Positions 52,818 through 64,000 of a stretch of 64,000 bases of DNA are shown here, piece by piece. The DNA lies in NCBI RefSeq assembly GCF_008642355.1, contig NZ_CP029193.1:7650001-7714000 (forward strand), in the 5' to 3' direction. Under the pieces are notes generated by a model. That model did no database searches. It saw only the letters and a list, made by a program, of their open reading frames with translations, and was not told the DNA's origin. Made by a program: the position numbers and the translations under genes. Position 1 is the stretch's first letter; each line of letters opens with the position of its first letter. Source of the DNA: Streptomyces venezuelae. Lineage in GTDB: Bacteria; Actinomycetota; Actinomycetes; Streptomycetales; Streptomycetaceae.

Positions 52818-53234
52818 ATGTCGGCGGGGCTGGACGAGGGGCGGATGCGGCATCTGGAGCTGATCCAGACGATCGTGACCCGCATGGGCAACAACTCCTT
52901 CCTCATCAAGGGGTGGTCGCTGACGGTCACGGGCGCCCTGCTCGCCTACGCCGTCGGCAACGACAAGAGGGCCATCGCCCTGGTCGGCTTCGTGCCGGTG
53001 CTCGCCTTCTGGGCCCTGGACGGCTACTTCCTTTACCAGGAGCGGCTGTTCAGGCGCCTCTACGAGCGGGCGCGCAGCACGTCGTCCGCGGACACGGTCG
53101 AACCGTTCTCCATGGACGTGGCGCCGGGCAGGGAGAAGGCCGGTGTGCTGAAGGCCGCCGGGTCCTTCACCATCGCCGGGTTCTACGGCGGCCTCACCCT
53201 GGCCCAGTTCTTCGCACTGCTATTCGTGCTGTAG
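52818..53234 (+). CDS. Small membrane protein of unknown function
   Basis: 138 residues. I do not recognise the family with certainty. An amphipathic opening (HLELIQTIVTRMGNNSFLIK) leads to three hydrophobic segments (GWSLTVTGALLAYAVGN; ALVGFVPVLAFWALDGYFLY; GGLTLAQFFALLFVL) with a charged linker between the second and third. ATG 52818 follows GGGGGGACAC. Its last 15 nt overlap the convergent HIT gene. It lies near the TIR genes but is separated from them by that gene, so a functional link is not shown. Confidence 0.65.
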   Translation: MSAGLDEGRMRHLELIQTIVTRMGNNSFLIKGWSLTVTGALLAYAVGNDKRAIALVGFVPVLAFWALDGYFLYQERLFRRLYERARSTSSADTVEPFSMDVAPGREKAGVLKAAGSFTIAGFYGGLTLAQFFALLFVL

Positions 53235-53684
53235 GGAGGGGTCCCGCGGGGCGTCCAGTGCCGCGCGCAGGCGGCGGACCGAGTCGTCGAGGCGGTCCGC
53301 GTCCGTCGGGGCCGGCTCGGGCCACAGCCGCGGCATCCTGTCGCCCGTGTAGCGCGGTACGACGTGGACGTGGAGGTGGAACACCGACTGGGTGGCCACC
53401 GCGCCGGACGACTGGATGACGTTCAGCCCCTCGGGGCGGTGGACCGCCCGGACCGCGTGCGCGGCCCTGAGCACCGCCGTCCCGACGGCCGCCGCCGTCG
53501 CCTCGTCGAGGTCCCAGATGTCCGCGACGTGGCGTCGGGGCACGACGAGGACGTGTCCCGGGTGGACCGGTTCGAGGGGGAGGAAGGTCAGGGTGTCGGC
53601 CGTTCCGGTGACGACACGTGCCGGTCCGGCCCCCGCTGCGACCTTGCAGAAGACACAGTCGGGGGCGTGGTGTTCGGTGCTCAT
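53220..53684 (-). CDS. HIT-family nucleotide-binding protein
   Basis: 154 residues with the histidine triad HLHVHVVPR (about residues 101-109), a zinc-type N-terminal CVFCK and PGHVLVVPRRHV. HIT proteins hydrolyse nucleoside phosphoramidates or diadenosine polyphosphates. ATG at 53684. It lies 25 nt from the stop of the TIR-domain gene on the same strand and overlaps the membrane protein gene at its 3' end. Confidence 0.92.
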   Translation of the reverse strand: MSTEHHAPDCVFCKVAAGAGPARVVTGTADTLTFLPLEPVHPGHVLVVPRRHVADIWDLDEATAAAVGTAVLRAAHAVRAVHRPEGLNVIQSSGAVATQSVFHLHVHVVPRYTGDRMPRLWPEPAPTDADRLDDSVRRLRAALDAPRDPSLQHE

Positions 53685-53709: not shown

Positions 53710-55410
53710 TCACGGCCCGGCGACGTCCCGGAACGCCAGGGGCAGCTTCTTCACCAGCTCCCTGTCCAGATGCGGCAGGTGGGTGCCGGCCTGGGCGACC
53801 ATGGACTGGGCGAGCGTGGAGACGTAGCTGTTCAGCTCCCGCTCCTTGTCATCCGCCACCAGATCGAAGACGTCCCCCTCGTACGCCGGCCTGCCCCCCG
53901 AGTGGACCCAGTACTGGTACGGCGCGAAGTCGGCCGGCATCTGCCAGTCCGAGAGGGGCCTGATCCAGAACACGGGCATGATGGCAATGGGCTCCTGGCC
54001 CGGGGCGGCGTTGAGCTTCGCCATGCGCCGCACCATGACGGCCCACTCGCGCCGGCACCAGTCCCGCTGGAAGTACCCCTCCGTGATCAGAGGGACCATC
54101 AGCCGCGTCGTGCGGATCGCCTCGATCATCTTCGGCTCCCACGTGGCCCCGTGCTGCATCAGCTTGTCGAAGAAGCCGGACTTCGTGACCCGCCCGCCGA
54201 GCTTCGCCGTCACCCGCTTCTCCAGCAGGTTGTGGAACCTGAGCGCCTCGTCGAAGTCGACTTCCCGGTTGTGCCAGCTGGTGAAGAAGAAGCAGGAGGG
54301 CGTCTCGGCCGGCTCCACCGACGCCGTCCGCGGTGTCCCGTGCCAGAGGTCCGCCAGTTCCTCGGCCAGTCTGCGTACGCTGCTGGCCATCTGACGGCCG
54401 GTCCCCGCTGCGTCGGCCGCCTCCGACACCGTGTCGGCCAGCGCCCGGACGAACCCCGGGTCCTCCTGCTCGAACACGGTGTCGAGCAGCAGATCGACGC
54501 GCTCCGCCATCGACAGGAGCTCCACACCCACGGACGCCGTCTTGGGCAGCACGGTCGCCGTCGGCCGCGACCGCAGAGCCTCCATCCAGCGCAGGTAACT
54601 GCCGGTGTTCTCGCACACCGTCGCGCGCAACAGGCAGGACCGCAGACTCGTGCGGCCCGTGTCGAGCACATCGGCCCGCCGCGGCGGGGGAAGCGAGGGC
54701 GAGGGCTCCGGACGCGCGGGCGGCGGGGGAACCATGCGGGCTATCTCCGTGACGGTGACGACCTGTTCCACGGTGACCTTGCCCGACAGGACCGCTTCGC
54801 CGGCGCGCACGATCTGGCGCGGATGCCCGTCGAAGGTGTCGGCGAGCCGGGCGGCCTGCCGGTTGTCCAGACCCATGTTCTCCATGAGGAGCCGCACCAC
54901 GTCGGCACCGGGCAGCGGGCCCACGAGCAGCCGGGCGTTCTGCTGCCACGCGCCGGTTCCGCGCGACGTGACCAGAACGCGCGCGTTGCCCTCCGGGAAG
55001 TGCTCCCGCAGGCCGTCCGGATCCGCCGCGTTGTCGAAGATGTAGAGCCAGTCGGCCGCCGTCGGACCGTCCAGCGGCCGCCCCAGATCCCGCTCGAACC
55101 GCTCCCGCAGCCGCTCCGTCTCCTCGGCCACCCGCGCGGCGAGCCGGACCGGGTCCGGTTCCCGGGCGCAGTCGAAGACCCACATCAACTCGTAGTGCTG
55201 GGTGAAGAGGTGGGCGTAGGAGAAGGCCAGCTGCGAGGTCCCGTACCCGTGCGGGCGGCCCTCCGGGTCGTGCACCAGCACCGCGCGGTGGTCCATGAGC
55301 AGCCGATGCGCGTCCGCGATCTCCTCGTCCCTGCCGACGAACGGGGCCGGCAGCGGCGGGAGGTTGTTGATCCGCGGCAGCTCCCGGGGCGGACGCCGTG
55401 ACGGGCTCAC
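53710..55410 (-). CDS. NTPase-like protein with C-terminal FxsC-type TIR domain
   Basis: 566 residues. The N-terminus has the PFVGRDEEI entry typical of STAND/NB-ARC NTPases, but the P-loop site reads PEGRPHGYGTSQLA, without the Lys, so nucleotide hydrolysis is doubtful. RVLVTSRGTGAW is the usual sensor segment. A Pro-rich linker (near residue 235) and helical middle lead to a TIR-like domain from about residue 373 (CFFFTSWHN, LITEGYFQRDWCRREWA), close in pattern to FxsC. GTG at 55410 overlaps the second TIR gene's stop. Divergent neighbours fxsA-fxsT suggest it is an accessory of that system. Confidence 0.75.
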   Translation of the reverse strand: MSPSRRPPRELPRINNLPPLPAPFVGRDEEIADAHRLLMDHRAVLVHDPEGRPHGYGTSQLAFSYAHLFTQHYELMWVFDCAREPDPVRLAARVAEETERLRERFERDLGRPLDGPTAADWLYIFDNAADPDGLREHFPEGNARVLVTSRGTGAWQQNARLLVGPLPGADVVRLLMENMGLDNRQAARLADTFDGHPRQIVRAGEAVLSGKVTVEQVVTVTEIARMVPPPPARPEPSPSLPPPRRADVLDTGRTSLRSCLLRATVCENTGSYLRWMEALRSRPTATVLPKTASVGVELLSMAERVDLLLDTVFEQEDPGFVRALADTVSEAADAAGTGRQMASSVRRLAEELADLWHGTPRTASVEPAETPSCFFFTSWHNREVDFDEALRFHNLLEKRVTAKLGGRVTKSGFFDKLMQHGATWEPKMIEAIRTTRLMVPLITEGYFQRDWCRREWAVMVRRMAKLNAAPGQEPIAIMPVFWIRPLSDWQMPADFAPYQYWVHSGGRPAYEGDVFDLVADDKERELNSYVSTLAQSMVAQAGTHLPHLDRELVKKLPLAFRDVAGP

Positions 55411-56501
55411 CGGCCGCTCCCACGATCCGCCGACCGCTGCGGGGTCTCCGGGAGCACCTGCTCGATCAGGTGCTCGGCCTCCGCGGGATCCGCGCCGGCC
55501 AGGACGACGACGTTCGCGTCACGGACGAGCAGCGGCCGGGGAGCCTTGTCGATCTGCACCAGGACGGCCTGCGACGACCGGCCGGGGGAGTTGACGAACG
55601 TGTCCGCCCACTCGGTGGGGCTCGTGTTCCCGGCGGCGAAGTAGTTGCGCGAGAAGATGACGAGCATGCGCTCGGCGGCGGCCCGCGCCTGCGCGACCGC
55701 GTCCTGGAGACTCTCCCTGCTGGCACGCCAGCGGCGCTGCACGACATCGTGCCCCCGCTGGCCGAGCACCTCCGACATCCAGTCGGCCCAGGGCTGGTCG
55801 GCGCCGACGTAACTGATGGCGACCGAGCCCGGCGCGCGCCGCTGCAGCGTCCCGGAGTCGAGGATCTCGGTCCAGCGCGCCCAGTTCCGCACGCTGCCCG
55901 TGTCGGCCGTCTGCCCCGTCTGCGCGCCGCTCTCGCTGCCGAACGCCGGGTCCAGTTCCTGGGCATCGGCCGGGTCCAGTCGTTCCAGTTCCGTACGCCC
56001 CGCCTCGGCAACGGTTTTGGCCAATTGTTCGAGCAGCGCGTAATACCGTACTTCGTTCTCCGCATGGGTGGGGGCAGCCAGGGACTCCAGGCCGTACTGC
56101 CGCAGCCAGTCGAAGGCTCCGGGCCCCTCCACCGATCTGCGTACGCCCTCCGGAAGCTGGTCGTCGGCGACGGGTTTCCAGCAGAGGGGGACCAGACAGC
56201 CGCGTGCCGTGACGCCCCGGATGTCCTCGTGATGGCGCATACGGGCATCGAAGACCGCCCACTCGAGTCCCGCGCCGCGATCGGTGAAGTAGCGCGGTGA
56301 GTACAGCACGATCATGACACCGGCCCTGGTCACGGCGGACTCGCGGACCGAATCCGGCTCCGCGACCGCGCCGAGCACACCGCTGACGCCGAACCCCTCC
56401 TGGATCCGCAGCTGATACTCCAGATCGGCATGGAAACGCGTCAGCGCACGCCAGCCATCAGCACGTACACAACTCGTATAGAAGAAAGCGGCTGGATCCA
56501 C
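55407..56501 (-). CDS. Double TIR-domain protein (FxsC-like plus canonical TIR)
   Basis: 364 residues with two TIR-type modules: an FxsC-like one at the N-terminus (PAAFFYTSCVR, VLYSPRYFTDRGAGLEWAV) and a canonical TIR at the C-terminus (SVAISYVGADQPWADWM, LVIFSRNYF). A Gln/Gly-rich linker separates them. GTG at 56501 is preferred because GAGGGG precedes it; a TTG at 56525 would add eight residues. It is divergent from fxsA over about 356 nt and coupled to the next TIR gene by 4 nt. TIR domains can act as NADases or as signalling adaptors; the sequence alone does not decide. Confidence 0.75.
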   Translation of the reverse strand: MDPAAFFYTSCVRADGWRALTRFHADLEYQLRIQEGFGVSGVLGAVAEPDSVRESAVTRAGVMIVLYSPRYFTDRGAGLEWAVFDARMRHHEDIRGVTARGCLVPLCWKPVADDQLPEGVRRSVEGPGAFDWLRQYGLESLAAPTHAENEVRYYALLEQLAKTVAEAGRTELERLDPADAQELDPAFGSESGAQTGQTADTGSVRNWARWTEILDSGTLQRRAPGSVAISYVGADQPWADWMSEVLGQRGHDVVQRRWRASRESLQDAVAQARAAAERMLVIFSRNYFAAGNTSPTEWADTFVNSPGRSSQAVLVQIDKAPRPLLVRDANVVVLAGADPAEAEHLIEQVLPETPQRSADRGSGR

Positions 56502-56857: not shown

Positions 56858-57043
56858 ATGGCACATGACGCGGCACAGCACACCACACACGGCATCGCGT
56901 TATCCGCGGACCACGCACCCAGCGGCCCGCCCGACGCCCTCACCCTCAGCCGGCTCCCGCGCACCGCCCTCGTCGAAGCCCTGCTGCGCAACACCGGCCG
57001 CGCCGCGGGACCCGAGCGCCCGAGGTGGGAAAGTGCGGTGTGA
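56858..57043 (+). CDS. fxsA: FxSxx-COOH precursor peptide, WESAV variant
   Basis: A 61-residue peptide with no signal sequence: His/Thr-rich N-terminus, Pro-rich middle, a short helix (RTALVEALLRN) and the C-terminal pentapeptide WESAV. FxsA peptides end in F-x-S-x-x; here Trp stands at the Phe position while Ser and the small final residues match. The radical SAM protein encoded next is expected to modify this end. A CGGGGGGAG ribosome site precedes ATG 56858. Codon 15 is TTA (56900-56902), rare here and read by the bldA tRNA in Streptomyces. The last 11 nt overlap fxsB. Confidence 0.82.
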   Translation: MAHDAAQHTTHGIALSADHAPSGPPDALTLSRLPRTALVEALLRNTGRAAGPERPRWESAV

Positions 57044-58244
57044 GACCGCACCCCGCGCCACACCGCCCCCCGGCGAACCGGCGGCGACGTTCACCCAGTT
57101 CGTGGTGAAGCTCTACAGCCGCTGCAACTTCGGCTGCCCCGACTGCTACATCTACGAGCACCGCGACCGCGGCTGGACCGACCAGCCCCTGGTCATGGGC
57201 CCCGCGGTGATGAGAAGACTCTCCGGCCGCATCACCGACCACCTCCGCAGGCACACCCCGGAACGGGCCCAGGTCGTCCTGCACGGAGGTGAACCCCTGC
57301 TCGCCGGGCCCGCGGTCCTGGAGCGCTTCGCCCGCCGCCTGCGCGCCGACTGCCAGGACCTCACCACCCGGGTCGAACTGCTCGTCCAGACGAACGCCTC
57401 CCGGATCGACCGCACCTTCCTGGAGATCTTCCGCCGCTACGACGTCACCGTCGGCGTCAGCGTCGACGGCACCCCACGCTCACACGACCGCAGACGCCCC
57501 GACCGGGCGGGCCGGGGAACGTACACCGAAGTGGCCCGCGCCCTCTCCCTGCTGCGCACCCCGCGCTACCGGCGGCTGTACGGCGGTCTGCTGTGCGTCG
57601 TGGACATCGAGGCCGACCCCGTGGAGACGTACGAGGCGCTCCTCACGCACGAACCGCCCACCGTCGACCTGCTGCTCCCGCACGCCACCTGGCAGTTCCC
57701 GCCGCCCCGCCCGCCCGGCGCGGACGACGCGGCCTACGGCCGCTGGCTGGCCGCCGTGTTCGACCGCTGGTTCGACGCGCCGCGGCGCGAGACCTCGCTG
57801 CGGCTCTTCGACTCGCTGCTCGACCTGCACCTCGGCGGCACCAGCACCAGCGAGATGTGGGGCCCCTACGGCTCGGACGTCGTGGTCATCCAGCCGTCCG
57901 GGCTCATCGAGTACAACGACATCCTCAAAACGGTGAGCGCACGGGCCGCCCGCTCCGTACTCCACATCGGCGCCCACGACTTCGACCGCGCGGCCGCCGA
58001 CCCCGGATTCGCCGCCGAGCGCGCGGGACTGACCGGACTCTGCGCACAGTGCAGGGCCTGCCCGGTCGTCGACATCTGCGGAGGCGGGCTCCGCGCCCAC
58101 CGCCACCGCCCCGACAACGGCTTCGACAACCCGTCGTGCTTCTGCGCCGACCTCCGGTACCTCATCGACCATGTACGGGAGCGGCTCACGCACGGCGTCA
58201 GCGCGCTGCGCACGCACCTTGACCGAGAGGGGTGGAGCGCATGA
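57033..58244 (+). CDS. fxsB: FxsB-family radical SAM/SPASM peptide-modifying enzyme
   Basis: 403 residues. The radical SAM cluster motif is CNFGCPDC (C-x3-C-x2-C, about residues 34-41), preceded by QFVVKLYSR, an FxsB hallmark. HGGEPLL follows as the SAM-binding segment. A C-terminal SPASM region (CAQCRACPVVDICGGGLRAH, then a Cys-x-Cys end) holds auxiliary clusters. GTG 57033 is preceded by GAGG and places the start 11 nt inside fxsA; longer frames lie entirely within fxsA. It lacks the HExxH or inactive metallohydrolase extension seen on many FxsB proteins. Expected to act on the FxsA C-terminus, chemistry unknown. Confidence 0.9.
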   Translation: MRCETAPRATPPPGEPAATFTQFVVKLYSRCNFGCPDCYIYEHRDRGWTDQPLVMGPAVMRRLSGRITDHLRRHTPERAQVVLHGGEPLLAGPAVLERFARRLRADCQDLTTRVELLVQTNASRIDRTFLEIFRRYDVTVGVSVDGTPRSHDRRRPDRAGRGTYTEVARALSLLRTPRYRRLYGGLLCVVDIEADPVETYEALLTHEPPTVDLLLPHATWQFPPPRPPGADDAAYGRWLAAVFDRWFDAPRRETSLRLFDSLLDLHLGGTSTSEMWGPYGSDVVVIQPSGLIEYNDILKTVSARAARSVLHIGAHDFDRAAADPGFAAERAGLTGLCAQCRACPVVDICGGGLRAHRHRPDNGFDNPSCFCADLRYLIDHVRERLTHGVSALRTHLDREGWSA

Positions 58245-59017
58245 CCGCGCACCGCAGTCCGGACGCTCCCTACTACTACATCAGCCACGCCCTGCCCGTG
58301 CCGTCGGACCCCTGGCTGCGCGAGTTCCACACCGACGTCCAGACCGAGATGCGCCGCCGCCTCGGACCGGGGCCCGGCCACTCGGGTCTCCTCTCCGAAC
58401 CCTGCCGCGGCCACGCGGCGGAAGGCCCGGACTGGACGCCCGCGATGCGCTGCCGCACGCTCCTCGTCCTGCTCACCGAGCGCTACTACAAGGAACCCGG
58501 CACCGTCCGGGATCTTGAGGTGTTCCGGCGGCGGCTGCTGTGGGGCCAGCACCAGACCGGCGAGCGGTCGCCCGCCCTGGTGCTCGTGCCGTGGAACACC
58601 AAGGGGCTGCCGCCGCGCAAGGAACCCGACACCCTGTCCGTGCCGGTCGGCGACTACACCCGGTCCGGCCTCGGAGGACTCGTAGGCGCACCACACGCCC
58701 GCGGCGGCTATCTGAAGGTGCTGCGCGCCGTCGTCGAACGAATCCTCACCGGCGCCCGACACTCGCCTCCCGTCATGACGCCCGAAGACCTGTACTTCAC
58801 TGCTTCCCCAGGGGTTTCGGGAATGCCGAGAAGTCCACTCTCGGGCAGGAAATTCCTGGATAGGCAGTTCGCTCCGGTGCGGGTACCGTGGCAGCCAACG
58901 CACGCCGCACCACCGTCCCGCCCTGCCGAGGCATGGTGGGAGGCAGCCCCTCACCGTTCCTGGTTCTCCACTCCGGAGAGCGACGAGCGGCCCATCCTCC
59001 GGGGGCCTCACAGCTGA
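58241..59017 (+). CDS. fxsC: TIR-like protein FxsC
   Basis: 258 residues of the FxsC type: an N-terminal TIR-like domain with PYYYISHALPVPSDPWLREF (where others have FFLSYA) and LLVLLTERYYKEPG, then a low-complexity C-terminal part rich in Pro and Trp. ATG 58241 overlaps the fxsB stop (ATGA) and has GGTGGAG upstream. FxsC is a constant partner of FxsA and FxsB, and its role is unknown. Two further proteins in the divergent genes carry the same type of domain. Confidence 0.85.
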   Translation: MTAHRSPDAPYYYISHALPVPSDPWLREFHTDVQTEMRRRLGPGPGHSGLLSEPCRGHAAEGPDWTPAMRCRTLLVLLTERYYKEPGTVRDLEVFRRRLLWGQHQTGERSPALVLVPWNTKGLPPRKEPDTLSVPVGDYTRSGLGGLVGAPHARGGYLKVLRAVVERILTGARHSPPVMTPEDLYFTASPGVSGMPRSPLSGRKFLDRQFAPVRVPWQPTHAAPPSRPAEAWWEAAPHRSWFSTPESDERPILRGPHS

Positions 59018-59041: not shown

Positions 59042-62000
59042 ATGAGCAGTGCCGAGCCGTCCGGTTCCATACGCGGTGGAAACCAGGCGACCGTCGTCAC
59101 CTTCTACTCGTACAAAGGCGGGGTCGGGCGGACGATGGCACTGGCCAACGTCGCCTGGCTGCTGGCCGACGCGGGCCGCCGCGTCCTCGTCGTCGACTGG
59201 GACCTCGAGTCACCCGGCCTCCACCGCTACCTGCGGCCCTTCCTGCGCAACCCCGAACTGACCGACTCCACCGGCGTGGTGGAGATGGTCCAGGACTACG
59301 GCCGTGCCGTCGAGGCACTGGCGGCCGAGAACCTCCCCGACGCCGAGAAGGACACCAGACTGGCGGAGCTGCTCGAGCGGCACACACAGGTGGGCATGCA
59401 CACCGACTCGCTCTCCTACCGCTTCGCGCGCCCCACCGGCAGGATCGACTTCCTCGGACCGGGCTGCCAGGACGGCCTCTACGGCCGGCGTGTCGCGACC
59501 TTCGACTGGGCCCGCTTCTACCAGGAGCAGAGCGGACGGCTCTTCGCCGAAGCCCTCAGGGAGAGCCTGCGCACCGCCGACTACGACTACGTGCTCATCG
59601 ACAGCCGCACCGGCCACTCGGACAACGCCAGCCTCTGCACGCTGCTCCTGCCCGATGTGGTCGTCGTCGGCTTCAACTTCAGCAACCAGTCCATCGAGGG
59701 CTCCGCCGCCGTCGCCCGGCAGGTGCGCGAACAGTCGGGGAGCCGCATCAGGGTGCTGCCGGTCCCGATGCGCGTGGACCGCTCCCACCCCGAACAGGCC
59801 GAGCGCCGCCGCTCCCGGGCCAGGGACCAGTTCGCGGGCGCGGCGAGCCCGATCCTGCTCACCGGTGAGGAGCAGTACTGGCGTGAGGTCGAGGTGGCGC
59901 ACCTGCCGAACGTCGCGTACGAGGAAGTCCTCATCCCCTTCGCCCTGCAGAACTACGAACCCTCCCTGCAGAAACAGGCCTACGAACGTCTCGGCCGGGA
60001 GATCACCGGCGACGCCGACCTGCGCTTCGCCCCCGTCGCGGCCGACGTCCGCGAGAACCTGGTCGAGGCATTCGCAGAGGTACCGGCGGCCTCCCGCGTC
60101 GTACGCCTCGTGTTCGAGCCGCAGGAGCGCCGGTGGGCGGACTGGATCCGCGCCGAGCTCTTCGCCAACGGGGTGATGTGCGAGTTCGACCGCGGCTCCG
60201 GCGAACGGGCCTGCCGCGGCGACACGACCGTCACCTACCTCGTCCTGATGTCGTCCGTCATGGTCGGCTCCCCTCGCCTCACCGGTCTGATGGCCCACCT
60301 GAATCCGGACGGGCTCATCGGCCGGCCGAAGGTCGACGTGGCGTGGCTCGAGGACGTCGAAGTACATCCGCCGTTCCGCGACCGGCCGGGCCCCAGGCTG
60401 CACACGCTGGAGGAGGGCCCGGCGCGCAACGCCCTCCTGACGCACTTCCTCCCCGGCGACCGCCGCGGCGTCCCGTGGGCGGACCGCTCCGGGCACGGGC
60501 CGCGTTTCCCCGGCAGGCACCCCCAGATATCCCACGTCCCCCCGCTGCGCCAGGGCGAGTTCCTCGGCCGGGAGGACTGCCTGCAAGAGGTACGGAACGC
60601 CCTGCCCCCCGGCCAGGCGGCGCGGAAACCGGTCGTGCTGCACGGCCCGCCCGGAGTGGGCAAGCGGACCTACGCGCTCGAGTACCTCAACCGGTTCCGC
60701 GCCGATTACGACATCGTGTGGTGGATGCCCGCCGACAGCTCCGAGAGCGTCGTACGCGAACTGGTGACACTGAGCGCGCAGTTGGGCGCGTCGCGGCGCT
60801 CGTCGCCCCGGGCCGTGGACGCGCTGCGCGAGCTCCTGGAGGGTCGGCACGGCGGGCCCGAGCGGCTGCTCCTCGTCTACGAGGACGCACGCCACCCCGA
60901 CGAGATCGAGAGCCTGCTCTTCAACAGCAACCAGGTGCACGTGCTCATCACGTCCGAGAACCCGGAGTGGGGCACGCTGGCCCACCCCATCTGCATCGAG
61001 CCGCCGACCGCCGAGGAGGCCGTGCGGTACCTGCGGCGCAAGGCGCCCCAGCTGACCCCGGAACTCGCCGCCCAACTGGTGGGGTTGGGGGAGACGCTGC
61101 CGCAGCTCCTCGACCAGATGGCCGCGTACCTGCAGAGCACCGCACGCCCGCCCGAGGCCGCGGTCGCCGAGTTCGTGCAAGGGGTCGGCAACCGGCAGGC
61201 CGTCGGCCAGGAGTTCGCCTCCGCGGTGTGGCAGAGCGTCGTCGAGGACCTGGGCAAGGAGCGCCCGGCCTCCCTCGACCTGCTGCGGATGCTGACGGCA
61301 CTGTCGCCGGAAGGCGCGAGCTGGGACCTGCTCGAGTCCCCGGCCGCCCTGGAGTTCCTCGGGCTGCCCGAGGGCGCGGAAGGCCGGTACCAGCTCGGCT
61401 TCGCGGCCCGTGGTCTGCTCAGCAGGTCCCAGGCGCGCCGCGGCCAGGACGGCAAGCGGCTCACGGCGTCCCGGATGATCCTCGCGGCACAGCTCGGAGA
61501 GCTGGAGCCCGCCGAGGCGGCGGAGATCGCCGCCGGGGTCCGCCGCGTCCTCGCCGCCTACGCACCCCCGGACGACCGGGTCGACGACCAGGACATGTAC
61601 CCGCGCTACGCGGAACTGGACCTGCACGTCGAGGCCTCGGGCGCGGTCACGGACGACAGCCCCGAGGTCCGCCGCTGGCTGGTCAACCAGGTGCGCTACC
61701 GGCGCCGCACCCAGTGCCTGGAAGCCGCGTTCACCCTCGCGCGGCGGCTGGAGGAGACGTGGACCGCGTCGTCGGGCGACGACGAACGCCTCCTGCTCCT
61801 GCTGCGCCTGCGCGTCGAGCTGGCCAACATCCACACCGACGCCGGACGGTATCCGGAAGCCAACCGGATCAACGGCGCCGCGCTGGAGGAACTGCGCAGG
61901 CTGCAGGACCTGGACGGCGAGTTCACGCTGCGCAGCGCGCTCGGACGGGGTGGCGAGCTGCGGGCCCTCGGCCGCCCCCAGGACGCCCTCGCCGAGGACC

Positions 62001-62962
62001 AGTCGACCCGGGACATCCTGTGCTCCAAGTACGGCCCGGAGAACCACTTCACACTCATGGCGGGCAGCAATCTCGGGCTCTCGCTGGACATGGTCGGCCT
62101 GCCGAACGACTCCCTGGAGCAGCACCAGGAGGTGCACGAACAGCGGGTGCGGGTCCTCGGCGAGCAGCATGAGCTGACCCTGCGCAGCTCCGTGCACGTG
62201 GCCGGCAGGCTGCGTGAGATGGGCCGGTACGACGACTCGCTGACCCGGCTCCAGGAGATCTACCGCCTCACCCAGACGAACGAGGAGCTCGGCTGGACCC
62301 ACATGACGACGCTCCTCACGGCCTGCTCGCTGGCCTCGACGCTGCGGCACATCGCCACGCTCTCCCCGGCGCTGTCCTCGCAGACGCGGAAGGCGAAGGT
62401 GGACTCGGCCCGCATGCTCAACGCGCGGGCGCGGGACGCCTTCGTCGTGTACGGCGGCCCCCGCCACCCGGAAGCCCTGATCGCGGGTGTGGGTCTCGCG
62501 GCCGACCTGCGGTTCCTCGGCCGGATCGACGGGCCCCACGGGGCCCGCGCGCTGGCCGAGGAGAACCTCGCGGCGTTCCGCGAGTGGGGCGAGGACCACC
62601 TCTTCACCCGCATATGCGAGGTCAACCTCGCCCTGGTGCTGCGCGACGCGGAGGACGAGACCGCCGCCGAACTCAGCGAGCGGGGCCTGCGCGGCCTCAA
62701 GGAGAACCTTTATGTGGACCCGCACCATCCGCTGATCCTCACCGCGTCCCTGTGCCACGCCAACATGCTCGTCTTCGCCGGCGACTCACGGGCGGCGCGG
62801 GAGCTGGACGAGGTGACGCACCGGGGTCTGCTCGAGAAGTTCGGCCCCGACCACCCCCTCACGCAGACCGTGGCCGCGCACCTGGGGCTGCGGGCGGACG
62901 CCGGGGGCCACGCGGGTCCGGACAACCGGATCAGCATCGAACTCGACGTACCGAAGATCTGA
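59042..62962 (+). CDS. fxsT: FxsT: MinD-like ATPase / TIR / NTPase / TPR protein
   Basis: 1306 residues. The N-terminus is a MinD/ParA-type ATPase (YSYKGGVGRTMALANVAWLL, deviant Walker A; DYDYVLIDSRTG). Around residues 350-410 is a TIR-like segment (RVVRLVFEPQERRWADWI). A second P-loop NTPase of the NB-ARC type begins near residue 515 (FLGREDCLQEV; HGPPGVGKRTYALEYL, about 534; LLLVYEDA). The last about 410 residues are tetratricopeptide repeats. This is the layout of FxSxx-system TPR proteins, which resemble immune or signalling STAND receptors. It is 24 nt downstream of fxsC and probably cotranscribed. Confidence 0.88.
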   Translation: MSSAEPSGSIRGGNQATVVTFYSYKGGVGRTMALANVAWLLADAGRRVLVVDWDLESPGLHRYLRPFLRNPELTDSTGVVEMVQDYGRAVEALAAENLPDAEKDTRLAELLERHTQVGMHTDSLSYRFARPTGRIDFLGPGCQDGLYGRRVATFDWARFYQEQSGRLFAEALRESLRTADYDYVLIDSRTGHSDNASLCTLLLPDVVVVGFNFSNQSIEGSAAVARQVREQSGSRIRVLPVPMRVDRSHPEQAERRRSRARDQFAGAASPILLTGEEQYWREVEVAHLPNVAYEEVLIPFALQNYEPSLQKQAYERLGREITGDADLRFAPVAADVRENLVEAFAEVPAASRVVRLVFEPQERRWADWIRAELFANGVMCEFDRGSGERACRGDTTVTYLVLMSSVMVGSPRLTGLMAHLNPDGLIGRPKVDVAWLEDVEVHPPFRDRPGPRLHTLEEGPARNALLTHFLPGDRRGVPWADRSGHGPRFPGRHPQISHVPPLRQGEFLGREDCLQEVRNALPPGQAARKPVVLHGPPGVGKRTYALEYLNRFRADYDIVWWMPADSSESVVRELVTLSAQLGASRRSSPRAVDALRELLEGRHGGPERLLLVYEDARHPDEIESLLFNSNQVHVLITSENPEWGTLAHPICIEPPTAEEAVRYLRRKAPQLTPELAAQLVGLGETLPQLLDQMAAYLQSTARPPEAAVAEFVQGVGNRQAVGQEFASAVWQSVVEDLGKERPASLDLLRMLTALSPEGASWDLLESPAALEFLGLPEGAEGRYQLGFAARGLLSRSQARRGQDGKRLTASRMILAAQLGELEPAEAAEIAAGVRRVLAAYAPPDDRVDDQDMYPRYAELDLHVEASGAVTDDSPEVRRWLVNQVRYRRRTQCLEAAFTLARRLEETWTASSGDDERLLLLLRLRVELANIHTDAGRYPEANRINGAALEELRRLQDLDGEFTLRSALGRGGELRALGRPQDALAEDQSTRDILCSKYGPENHFTLMAGSNLGLSLDMVGLPNDSLEQHQEVHEQRVRVLGEQHELTLRSSVHVAGRLREMGRYDDSLTRLQEIYRLTQTNEELGWTHMTTLLTACSLASTLRHIATLSPALSSQTRKAKVDSARMLNARARDAFVVYGGPRHPEALIAGVGLAADLRFLGRIDGPHGARALAEENLAAFREWGEDHLFTRICEVNLALVLRDAEDETAAELSERGLRGLKENLYVDPHHPLILTASLCHANMLVFAGDSRAARELDEVTHRGLLEKFGPDHPLTQTVAAHLGLRADAGGHAGPDNRISIELDVPKI

Positions 62963-63008: not shown

Positions 63009-63836
63009 ATGGCGTATCAGTGGACGGGGTCGATCGGCGTCCCGCACGCCGTGGCGGTGCTCTCCACGACCCGCGGCTGCGGCGCGACGCTGCTGACGGC
63101 CGCGGCGGGCCTGATCGTCGACGACGCGGTGGGCCGCGTCGGGCAGACGGTGGTCCTGATGGACGCCGACACCGACGGCGGCGGTCTCACCGAGCTGACC
63201 CGGTACTGGAACGCCACATCCGAAGCCGGGGTCGACGGCCTCATCGGGTTCGCCGAGGACCCCATCGAGCTGGCCAACCGCTCCGTGCACGGCTATCTGC
63301 GGCACGTGCACACCGGGGACCCACGCCGCCAGGACATGGCCGTCTTCCCGCTCGGCCCCGGCGACAAGCCGGGCGAGCACCTGCCGACCAACGGAACGCT
63401 CCAGGAGACCGTCGGTGCCGCGGTGGAACGGCTGATGGACCTTCAGGGCTGTCTGATCGTCGACTGCGGTGTCGTCCGCACCCCGGTCACGCTCGAAGTG
63501 TGCCGACAGGTCCAGCACATCGTCCTGGTCGGCCGGGCGGGGCCGACGAGCGACCTGGAGACCGCCGAGCTCATGGCGTGGCTGACCGAGCGGGGCCTGG
63601 GCGAGAAGGTCCTCGGCCGGGTGTGCAACGACCCGAACGGCACACGACACGGGGCGGCCGAGGTCACGGAGGTCACTCCCGCACTGATGCGACTGCCGTA
63701 CGACCGGGGCGGCGCGGCCACGATCGCCCTGGGGCGGCTGCCGGGCCACGGCAGTCCGCTGGTTCAGGCCCTGTGCGAGCAGATGCTGGCACGGTGGCCG
63801 GACGTTCTCAACGACGGGGCCATGGGGGCGAGATGA
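63009..63836 (+). CDS. MinD/ParA-like protein with altered P-loop
   Basis: 275 residues with the SIMIBI fold: VAVLSTTRGCGATLLTAAAG in place of a Walker A (RGCGAT instead of KGGxGKT), VVLMDADTDGGGLT, LIVDCGVVRTP as a Walker B-like strand and VLVGRAGPTSD. The P-loop lacks both the signature Lys and the usual Gly pair, so it may bind without hydrolysing nucleotide. It follows fxsT by 46 nt with an AACGAGGAGGA ribosome site and overlaps the next gene (ATGA). The context points to a partner or regulator of FxsT. Confidence 0.78.
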   Translation: MAYQWTGSIGVPHAVAVLSTTRGCGATLLTAAAGLIVDDAVGRVGQTVVLMDADTDGGGLTELTRYWNATSEAGVDGLIGFAEDPIELANRSVHGYLRHVHTGDPRRQDMAVFPLGPGDKPGEHLPTNGTLQETVGAAVERLMDLQGCLIVDCGVVRTPVTLEVCRQVQHIVLVGRAGPTSDLETAELMAWLTERGLGEKVLGRVCNDPNGTRHGAAEVTEVTPALMRLPYDRGGAATIALGRLPGHGSPLVQALCEQMLARWPDVLNDGAMGAR

Positions 63837-64000
63837 GCGATGACAGGACCGTGACCGGTACCGGGGCGCCGCCGGAGGTGCGCCGCGCGTCGCACGTGAC
63901 CGACGACAGCGACGTGTTCGTGGAGCTGTGCGCGAACGCGCTCAGCGAGACCGGGCTCCATCATGTGGCGCAGTACCGCTGGGGCGTCTTCGGCTATTCG
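63833..64000 (+). CDS. Unidentified protein, 3' end outside window
   Basis: Begins at ATG 63833 overlapping the previous stop and runs off the window after 56 codons. The visible part (acidic start, then DVFVELCANALSETGLHHVA) shows no motif I can name. Tight coupling to the MinD-like gene makes it part of the same operon. Confidence 0.75.
   Translation, partial: MSDDRTVTGTGAPPEVRRASHVTDDSDVFVELCANALSETGLHHVAQYRWGVFGYS

What the first reader, a model, noticed from the sequence alone, without database searches (positions are those of the whole stretch)
56858..59017. FxSxx-COOH system whose precursor ends in WESAV instead of FxSxx
fxsA, fxsB and fxsC overlap one another as in the known family, and fxsT follows 24 nt after fxsC. 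The precursor's last five residues are W-E-S-A-V: Trp replaces the family-defining Phe while Ser stays. FxsB here is the short form without the C-terminal metallohydrolase-like extension. If FxsB joins or oxidises the aromatic residue, a Trp substrate would give a different modification.
Basis: partly seen in the sequence, partly recalled or inferred. Interest (0 to 1): 0.7.

Follow-up and report, generated by a model that had tools for sequence, protein, structure and literature searches.

The report
Tryptophan version of FxSxx peptide system
A small group of Streptomyces carries a version of a known peptide-crosslinking system in which the residue thought to be crosslinked has switched from phenylalanine to tryptophan, and the modifying enzyme has changed with it, so it probably makes a tryptophan-serine ring that could be tested directly.

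Summary
fxsA (56858-57043, 61 aa, ...PRWESAV-COOH), fxsB, fxsC and fxsT overlap or abut as stated; fxsB most likely starts at GTG 57033. The Trp is no one-off: seven genomes carry an orthologous FxsB, and all seven FxsAs end W-x-S-A-[VL] with a variable middle residue. fxsA is under purifying selection. FxsB trees make the seven one clade (support 100) among FxsBs with FxSxx precursors (95 FastTree; 76-86 IQ-TREE), so one Phe-to-Trp switch is likely. FxsB changed too: 7 positions are fixed in the clade and absent from 186 other FxsBs (0-2 in six control clades). Three lie in the radical-SAM CX3CX2C loop, where the residue before the third Cys, Tyr or His in 185 of 186 others, is Asp. An 8-gene cassette is shared by 7 of 7 loci. 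FxsB and FxsT pass their family cut-offs; FxsA does not match the FxSxx-COOH model. Best reading: FxsB forms a Trp-Ser three-residue cyclophane at the FxsA C-terminus, used inside the cell by FxsC/FxsT. The chemistry is inferred, not shown. The clade is rare (5 of 392 sampled genomes of the genus). New variant of a known kind.

The parts
56858..57043 (+). fxsA, Trp-type precursor, 61 aa, ends PRWESAV-COOH
   Evidence: purifying selection; no TIGR04268 match at E<=1
57026..57040 (+). C-terminal pentapeptide W-E-S-A-V, predicted crosslink W(i)-S(i+2)
   Evidence: W and S 7 of 7, middle residue E4/H/Q/L
57033..58244 (+). fxsB, short-form radical SAM/SPASM maturase (likely start GTG 57033; longest frame from ATG 56865)
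   Evidence: TIGR04269 415.6 bits over cut-off 370; start
57123..57146 (+). CX3CX2C loop of FxsB, C-N-F-G-C-P-D-C, clade-specific F33, P36, D37
   Evidence: 7 of 7 in the clade, 0 of 186 in other FxsB rows
58241..59017 (+). fxsC, TIR-like protein
   Evidence: NF040588 51.2 bits, below cut-off 130; in 7 of 7 clade loci
59042..62962 (+). fxsT, KGGVGR/MinD-like + AP-ATPase-like + TPR protein
   Evidence: NF040586 523.6 bits over cut-off 300; NF047398 132.7 over 90; TPR_12, sub-threshold NB-ARC and AAA_16
63009..63836 (+). MinD/Ssd-like protein of the cassette
   Evidence: TIGR03815 35.9 bits, below cut-off 154; in 7 of 7 loci
63833..64000 (+). start of the eighth cassette gene (349 aa, runs off the window; L208:1034-2083)
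   Evidence: no NCBIfam match; in 7 of 7 loci
55407..56501 (-). divergent TIR_2 protein with FxsC-like N-terminal part
   Evidence: TIR_2 65.3 bits; NF040588 66.1 bits, below cut-off; 7 of 7 loci
53710..55410 (-). divergent fusion of an FxsT-like N-terminal part and an FxsC/TIR-like domain
   Evidence: NF040586 77.8 and NF040588 83.9 bits, both below cut-off; TIR_2 29.6; 7 of 7 loci, match in two pieces in L006 and L210

Best explanation
A lineage-specific tryptophan variant of the FxSxx-COOH triceptide system. Shown: a real, conserved fxsA ending W-x-S-A-[VL]; a short FxsB of the cyclophane-forming radical SAM/SPASM family that has diverged together with it from FxSxx relatives; a conserved 8-gene cassette. 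Inferred: FxsB binds the conserved leader (L[PA]R[ST]xxVEALLR), uses SAM to abstract a hydrogen from the Ser Cbeta of W-x-S, and joins that carbon to the Trp ring (C6 or C7 by XncB/OscB precedent), a loss of 2 Da. Inferred: the loop changes (L/I33F, residue 36 to P, Y/H37D) and E/D287Q adapt the active site to the indole. Inferred: as no exporter, protease or HExxH hydroxylase was found in the cassette, the modified peptide acts inside the cell with FxsC (TIR-like), FxsT (MinD-like/AP-ATPase/TPR) and the divergent TIR proteins as a signal or sensed ligand in an immune-like response.
For: FxsB TIGR04269 415.6 bits >370. W-x-S-A-[VL] in 7 of 7 genomes. fxsA dN/dS <1 in 10 of 10 pairs of five species. 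Trees: clade support 100; grouped with FxSxx FxsBs at 95, 86, 76. Two near FxsBs of other genera keep Phe precursors and the usual loop. 7 exclusive fixed FxsB positions against 0-2 in six control clades. Leader homology: against a profile of eight other FxsA-type peptides all 7 Trp FxsAs score better than every reversed control. Cassette 7 of 7. Chemistry precedent: PMC11002830 section 16 passages; ChlB in the PDB at E 1.8e-101. Standalone FxSxx + AP-ATPase + MinD systems: PMC7159879 section 24.
Against: No biochemistry was found for this clade. The aromatic residue usual before the third cluster Cys (motif recalled) is Asp, which could mean altered or lost activity. FxsA has no TIGR04268 match and FxsC is below its cut-off. 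The FxSxx grouping is only moderately supported in the IQ-TREE runs (86, 76; roots set at the midpoint), and the precursors of the three rows L061, L081, L117 that join the clade (86, 62) were not found. In the reverse test (profile of the Trp FxsAs) two of eight other peptides, L157 and L216, score no better than reversed controls, and hhalign gives a probability of only 48%. In-cell action rests on absence of genes only.
Confidence: 0.62

Rival explanations
1. FxsB acts on the Trp but makes a different bond or regiochemistry (for example through N1, C2 or C4 of the indole, or Trp oxidation), using its remodelled CX3CX2C loop and extra cysteines C337 and C369.
For: F33, P36, D37, Q287 and E329 exclusive to the clade; C369 in 6 of 7 and in 0 of 186 others.
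Against: The three-residue cyclophane enzymes in the passages read join a ring carbon to Cbeta of i+2, for Trp too; Ser at i+2 is kept 7 of 7. C337 is not exclusive (18 of 186 others).
Confidence: 0.15
2. FxsB of this clade has lost or reduced catalysis; FxsA is a bound but unmodified peptide.
For: Loss of the Tyr/His before the third Cys, present in 185 of 186 others; the FxsBH extension of a long relative is itself called inactivated by NCBIfam.
Against: All three cluster Cys and Cys 340, 343, 349, 371 kept 7 of 7; strong FxsB and FxsA conservation.
Confidence: 0.12
3. Neutral substitution: an aromatic-promiscuous FxsB tolerates Trp, with no functional change.
For: XncB and OscB are reported to act on both Trp and Phe; Tyr also occurs at -5 in other FxsB-linked peptides (L060, L065).
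Against: W fixed in 7 of 7 genomes with FxsBs down to 59-63% identity to the window's; 7 exclusive FxsB positions.
Confidence: 0.08

Closest known systems
FxSxx-COOH / FxsB system (TIGR04268, TIGR04269, NF040586, NF040588)
   Different: Trp replaces Phe at -5; FxsA has no TIGR04268 match; FxsB lacks the NF040587 extension and has a changed CX3CX2C loop; FxsC below cut-off
Short-form FxsB with FxSxx precursors (L157-L159, L161, L216, L217)
   Same: Short FxsB; alignable leader; [FW]xS near the end
   Different: Precursors end in Phe type (FQSAI, FDSSI, FTSAL, FSSAI, AFNSAF, AFNSAL); usual C-N-L-x-C-x-[YH]-C loop
Triceptides by XncB/OscB (Trp-type) and MscB (Phe-Ser), PMC11002830 section 16
   Same: Predicted ring-to-Cbeta(i+2) crosslink; Trp used by XncB and OscB
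   Different: Those Trp links go to Arg, Asn or Asp; a Trp-Ser pair is not in the passages read
Standalone peptide-processing + AP-ATPase + MinD-like systems (PMC7159879, section 24)
   Same: Precursor, radical SAM, AP-ATPase/TPR protein with MinD-like domain
   Different: No HExxH (there 'metallopeptidase') gene found in this cassette; Trp-type peptide
ChlB (PDB 9gm3, 9gmc)
   Same: Closest solved sequence, E 1.8e-101 to the profile of A2
   Different: Usual CNLACDYC loop; a multiple cyclophane synthase by its title (reference list seen; that this is the 9gm3 protein is inferred from the name)

Membership tests
FxsB, TIGR04269 | Score over the curated cut-off | tested here: met
   415.6 vs 370 bits
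FxSxx-COOH precursor, TIGR04268 | Match to the family model | tested here: not met
   no match at E<=1 for the window FxsA; none at E<=10 for the L003 and L093 FxsAs; the L158 FxsA scores 41.2 vs 28, but the long-form L013 FxsA also falls short (21.4)
FxSxx-COOH precursor, TIGR04268 | Phe at -5 | tested here: not met
   Trp in 7 of 7
FxSxx-COOH precursor, TIGR04268 | Ser at -3 | tested here: met
   7 of 7 (same calls)
FxsBH, NF040587 | C-terminal inactivated beta-hydroxylase extension | tested here: not met
   only 17 aa after the FxsB domain; present in long form L013
FxsT, NF040586 | Score over cut-off | tested here: met
   523.6 vs 300 bits
FxsC, NF040588 | Score over cut-off | tested here: not met
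   51.2 vs 130 bits, over profile positions 1-181 of 182: related, not over the cut-off
Radical SAM enzyme | CX3CX2C cluster motif | tested here: met
   three Cys 7 of 7; aromatic before third Cys replaced by Asp; PF04055 44.4 vs 29.5 bits
Triceptide (three-residue cyclophane) | Ring carbon to Cbeta(i+2) bond shown chemically | not testable with these tools
   needs MS and NMR

The most novel reading that the evidence does not exclude
The Trp clade is a re-tooled three-residue cyclophane enzyme: a natural FxSxx-family maturase that switched aromatic substrate, with a radical-SAM cluster loop that lost the usual aromatic residue and gained a phenylalanine two residues after the first Cys, making a Trp-Ser indole cyclophane (possibly with its own regiochemistry) that serves as the internal ligand of a TIR/AP-ATPase system.
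Probability: 0.4. Interest if true: 0.7.

Novelty: new variant of a known kind. Interest (0 to 1): 0.52.

Why it matters
The FxSxx-COOH family is named for its Phe. Here evolution appears to have swapped the reacting residue once, in a small clade, with few enzyme changes fixed alongside. That makes the question of what sets aromatic specificity and regiochemistry in cyclophane-forming radical SAM enzymes testable by swapping a handful of residues between relatives. It also shows that the TIGR04268 model misses such precursors.

Tried and rejected
Protein queries to the genome search failed on the server; family and alignment queries were used instead. Structure prediction of A2 was asked for eight times and never accepted because the queue was full, so clade-specific positions are not mapped in three dimensions. 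Rejected: that Trp arose from the WGFNNAF-type peptides (their -5 residue is Phe or Tyr and their FxsBs form another group); that FxsB starts at ATG 56865. Eleven regex hits to W.S.. at a C-terminus were cut to 7: L007, L069, L084 and L124 were dropped because those ORFs end 146-379 nt upstream of the FxsB domain and look non-precursor, and L069, L084 and L124 have better candidates (GFNNAF, MFTSAL, GFNNAF). For 64 of 191 FxsB rows no precursor was assigned. The C-terminus classes come from regular expressions and are approximate. The precursors of three near relatives (L061, L081, L117) were looked for and not found. Searches failed on coordinates of mine.

Full report
OBSERVATION. The window lies in an 8.02-Mb one-contig genome. 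The genus is Streptomyces by inference: genome G081, listed as same genus, has the contig length (92,767) of the S. atriruber contig of L003. fxsA is 56858-57043, 61 aa, ending PRWESAV. The longest fxsB frame opens at ATG 56865, but over fxsA that frame carries stops in two of five species (7 of 10 pairs) and shows dN>dS in the other 3 pairs, while the fxsA frame has dN<dS in 10 of 10 pairs. The likely fxsB start is GTG 57033, 11 nt inside fxsA, behind a GAGGTGG stretch (by eye). fxsC most likely starts at ATG 58241 (ATGA), and fxsT at 59042, 24 nt after fxsC. FxsB matches TIGR04269 at 415.6 bits (cut-off 370), FxsT matches NF040586 at 523.6 (300), FxsC matches NF040588 at 51.2 (130), and FxsA matches nothing.

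THE TRP IS A CLADE TRAIT. The genome-contig scan gave 9 loci with FxsB relatives; the four closest (L003-L006, 89-57% identity) have FxsAs ending WESAV, WESAV, WESAV and WHSAV. A profile of six FxsBs (A1) against 392 genus genomes gave five at 733-794 bits and then a gap to 466 (only the five best first-look candidates of each genome were scored there). In 394 class genomes and 297 family genomes, samples that overlap the genus sample, only the window genome reached the clade's range. So seven genomes, from collections that hold one genome a species, are known: W 7 of 7, S 7 of 7, A 7 of 7, last residue V6/L1, middle residue E4/H/Q/L. A fixed aromatic, a free middle residue and a fixed third residue is the pattern of a three-residue cyclophane substrate (precedent in PMC11002830, passages of section 16).

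ORIGIN. A FastTree of 191 FxsB domains puts the seven in one clade (100), inside a 66-row group (95) that holds 48 long FxsBs with FxSxx-type precursors, short FxsBs with FxSxx precursors and six rows without an assigned precursor. A 65-row IQ-TREE gives 100 for the clade, 94 for its union with the short FxSxx forms and three rows without an assigned precursor, and 86 with the long forms. Adding two further FxsBs of other Streptomycetaceae genera, whose precursors end AFNSAF and AFNSAL, gives 100, 97 and 76; the node joining the clade to the three unassigned rows has only 62 there (86). All roots are midpoints. One Phe-to-Trp switch is the simplest reading, with moderate support. The leaders look homologous: a profile of eight other FxsA-type peptides (seven FxSxx, one the W-x-A peptide of L104) scores all seven Trp FxsAs (E 0.00026-1.1) better than every reversed control (4.6 or worse). 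The reverse test is weaker: the profile of the Trp FxsAs puts L158, L161, L217, L104, L078 above the best reversed control (26), but L216, L157 not, and L159 is not among the rows shown; hhalign gives E 0.00018 at 48% probability.

THE ENZYME CHANGED WITH THE SUBSTRATE. Among 193 aligned FxsB rows (7 clade, 186 others), seven positions are fixed in the clade and absent elsewhere: F33, P36, D37, L110, G280, Q287, E329 (numbered from GTG 57033; L110 is an insertion column empty in nearly all others, so six are substitutions). Six control clades of 3-7 rows have 0, 1, 2, 1, 0 and 1 such positions; they differ in depth, but the F1 control has a stem about as long as the clade's (0.46 and 0.48) and has one. 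Three of the seven are inside the cluster loop, C-[ND]-F-x-C-P-D-C against C-[ND]-[LI]-x-C-x-[YH]-C. The residue before the third Cys is Tyr or His in 185 of 186 others and a gap in one. That this position is normally aromatic across radical SAM enzymes, near the SAM adenine, is recalled. C369 is present in 6 of 7 and in 0 of 186 others; C337 in 7 of 7 but also in 18 of 186. Cys 31, 35, 38, 340, 343, 349 and 371 are kept 7 of 7. The closest solved protein by sequence is ChlB (9gm3, E 1.8e-101); a paper title in the reference list seen in passages of PMC12636437 calls ChlB a multiple cyclophane synthase.

SHORT FORM. The extension of the long FxsB scanned (L013) is NF040587, 'inactivated beta-hydroxylase extension form', with a sub-threshold TIGR04267 HExxH match. 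It is missing here. No HExxH, protease or exporter family was found among the cassette products (seven proteins by NCBIfam and Pfam, of which FxsB's NCBIfam list was cut at 25 of 40; the eighth product and the next gene by NCBIfam alone).

CASSETTE. All seven loci share: a divergent FxsT/FxsC-like fusion, a divergent TIR_2 protein, fxsA, fxsB, fxsC, fxsT, a MinD/Ssd-like gene and a 349-aa gene of unknown family (fxsA of L006 and L093 was found by frame). In three comparison loci with other FxsBs (L213-L215) only FxsB and FxsT relatives (in L213 also a match of the fusion's FxsT-like part) were found at that threshold. Window, L003, L004, L005 and L156 also share the genes to the left (52818-53684); L093 does not although 5.9 kb were available, so the cassette seems to lie at another site there; L006 cannot be judged (contig end). 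PADLOC gave partial matches only: pVip to FxsB (29 bits), PDC-M28B to residues 14-73 of FxsT (81.8 bits). Kaur et al. 2020 (PMC7159879; passages, and section 24; author names recalled) describe standalone peptide-processing systems with an AP-ATPase carrying an inactive MinD/ParA-like domain and propose that the processed peptide is a toxin or signal; this cassette fits that description except for the missing HExxH gene and the Trp.

MECHANISM. Most likely: leader-guided FxsB, SAM-derived radical at Ser Cbeta, attack on the Trp ring, Trp-Ser cyclophane, then in-cell sensing by FxsC/FxsT. Only the sequence facts are shown; every chemical and cellular step is inferred.

LITERATURE. The ten searches of the open library listed no paper on Trp-type FxSxx peptides by title or abstract; three papers were opened (PMC7159879, PMC11002830, PMC12636437), in passages or one section. 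Four primary papers on these enzymes are not held, so a listing of W-x-S precursors there cannot be excluded.

Noticed in passing
L104 and L172 (genomes G169, G215), next to a TIGR04269-type FxsB: Second, unrelated Trp-type precursor: both 56-aa candidates end DEYTSWQASA (W-x-A-x-x), with a leader alignable to FxsA; their FxsBs form a separate branch.
   Followed up: partly
L043, L092, L108, L119, L131 and others: Large group of short FxsBs whose precursors end LWGF[NTD]NAF or similar (mostly Phe at -5, Asn or Ser at -3), not covered by the FxSxx name.
   Followed up: partly
L009, L047, L066, L133 and others; L088, L115, L145: FxsB-linked peptides ending YEDAP or YEDSP-like, and others ending NAFDSGV plus one residue, each class with its own FxsB branch.
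   Followed up: no
window 53710-56501 (-): Two divergent TIR/FxsC-like genes, one with an FxsT-like N-terminal part, beside the Trp-type cassette in 7 of 7 loci.
   Followed up: partly
L208:1034-2083 (window 63833 onward): 349-aa cassette protein, conserved in 7 of 7 loci, no NCBIfam match; it may hold a repeated domain, as its N-terminal half also matches the C-terminal half of the L006 protein.
   Followed up: no
G108:C1:2041168-2050442 and G068:C1:8962842-8968536: Two FxsB genes within a few kilobases of each other in each of these genomes.
   Followed up: no
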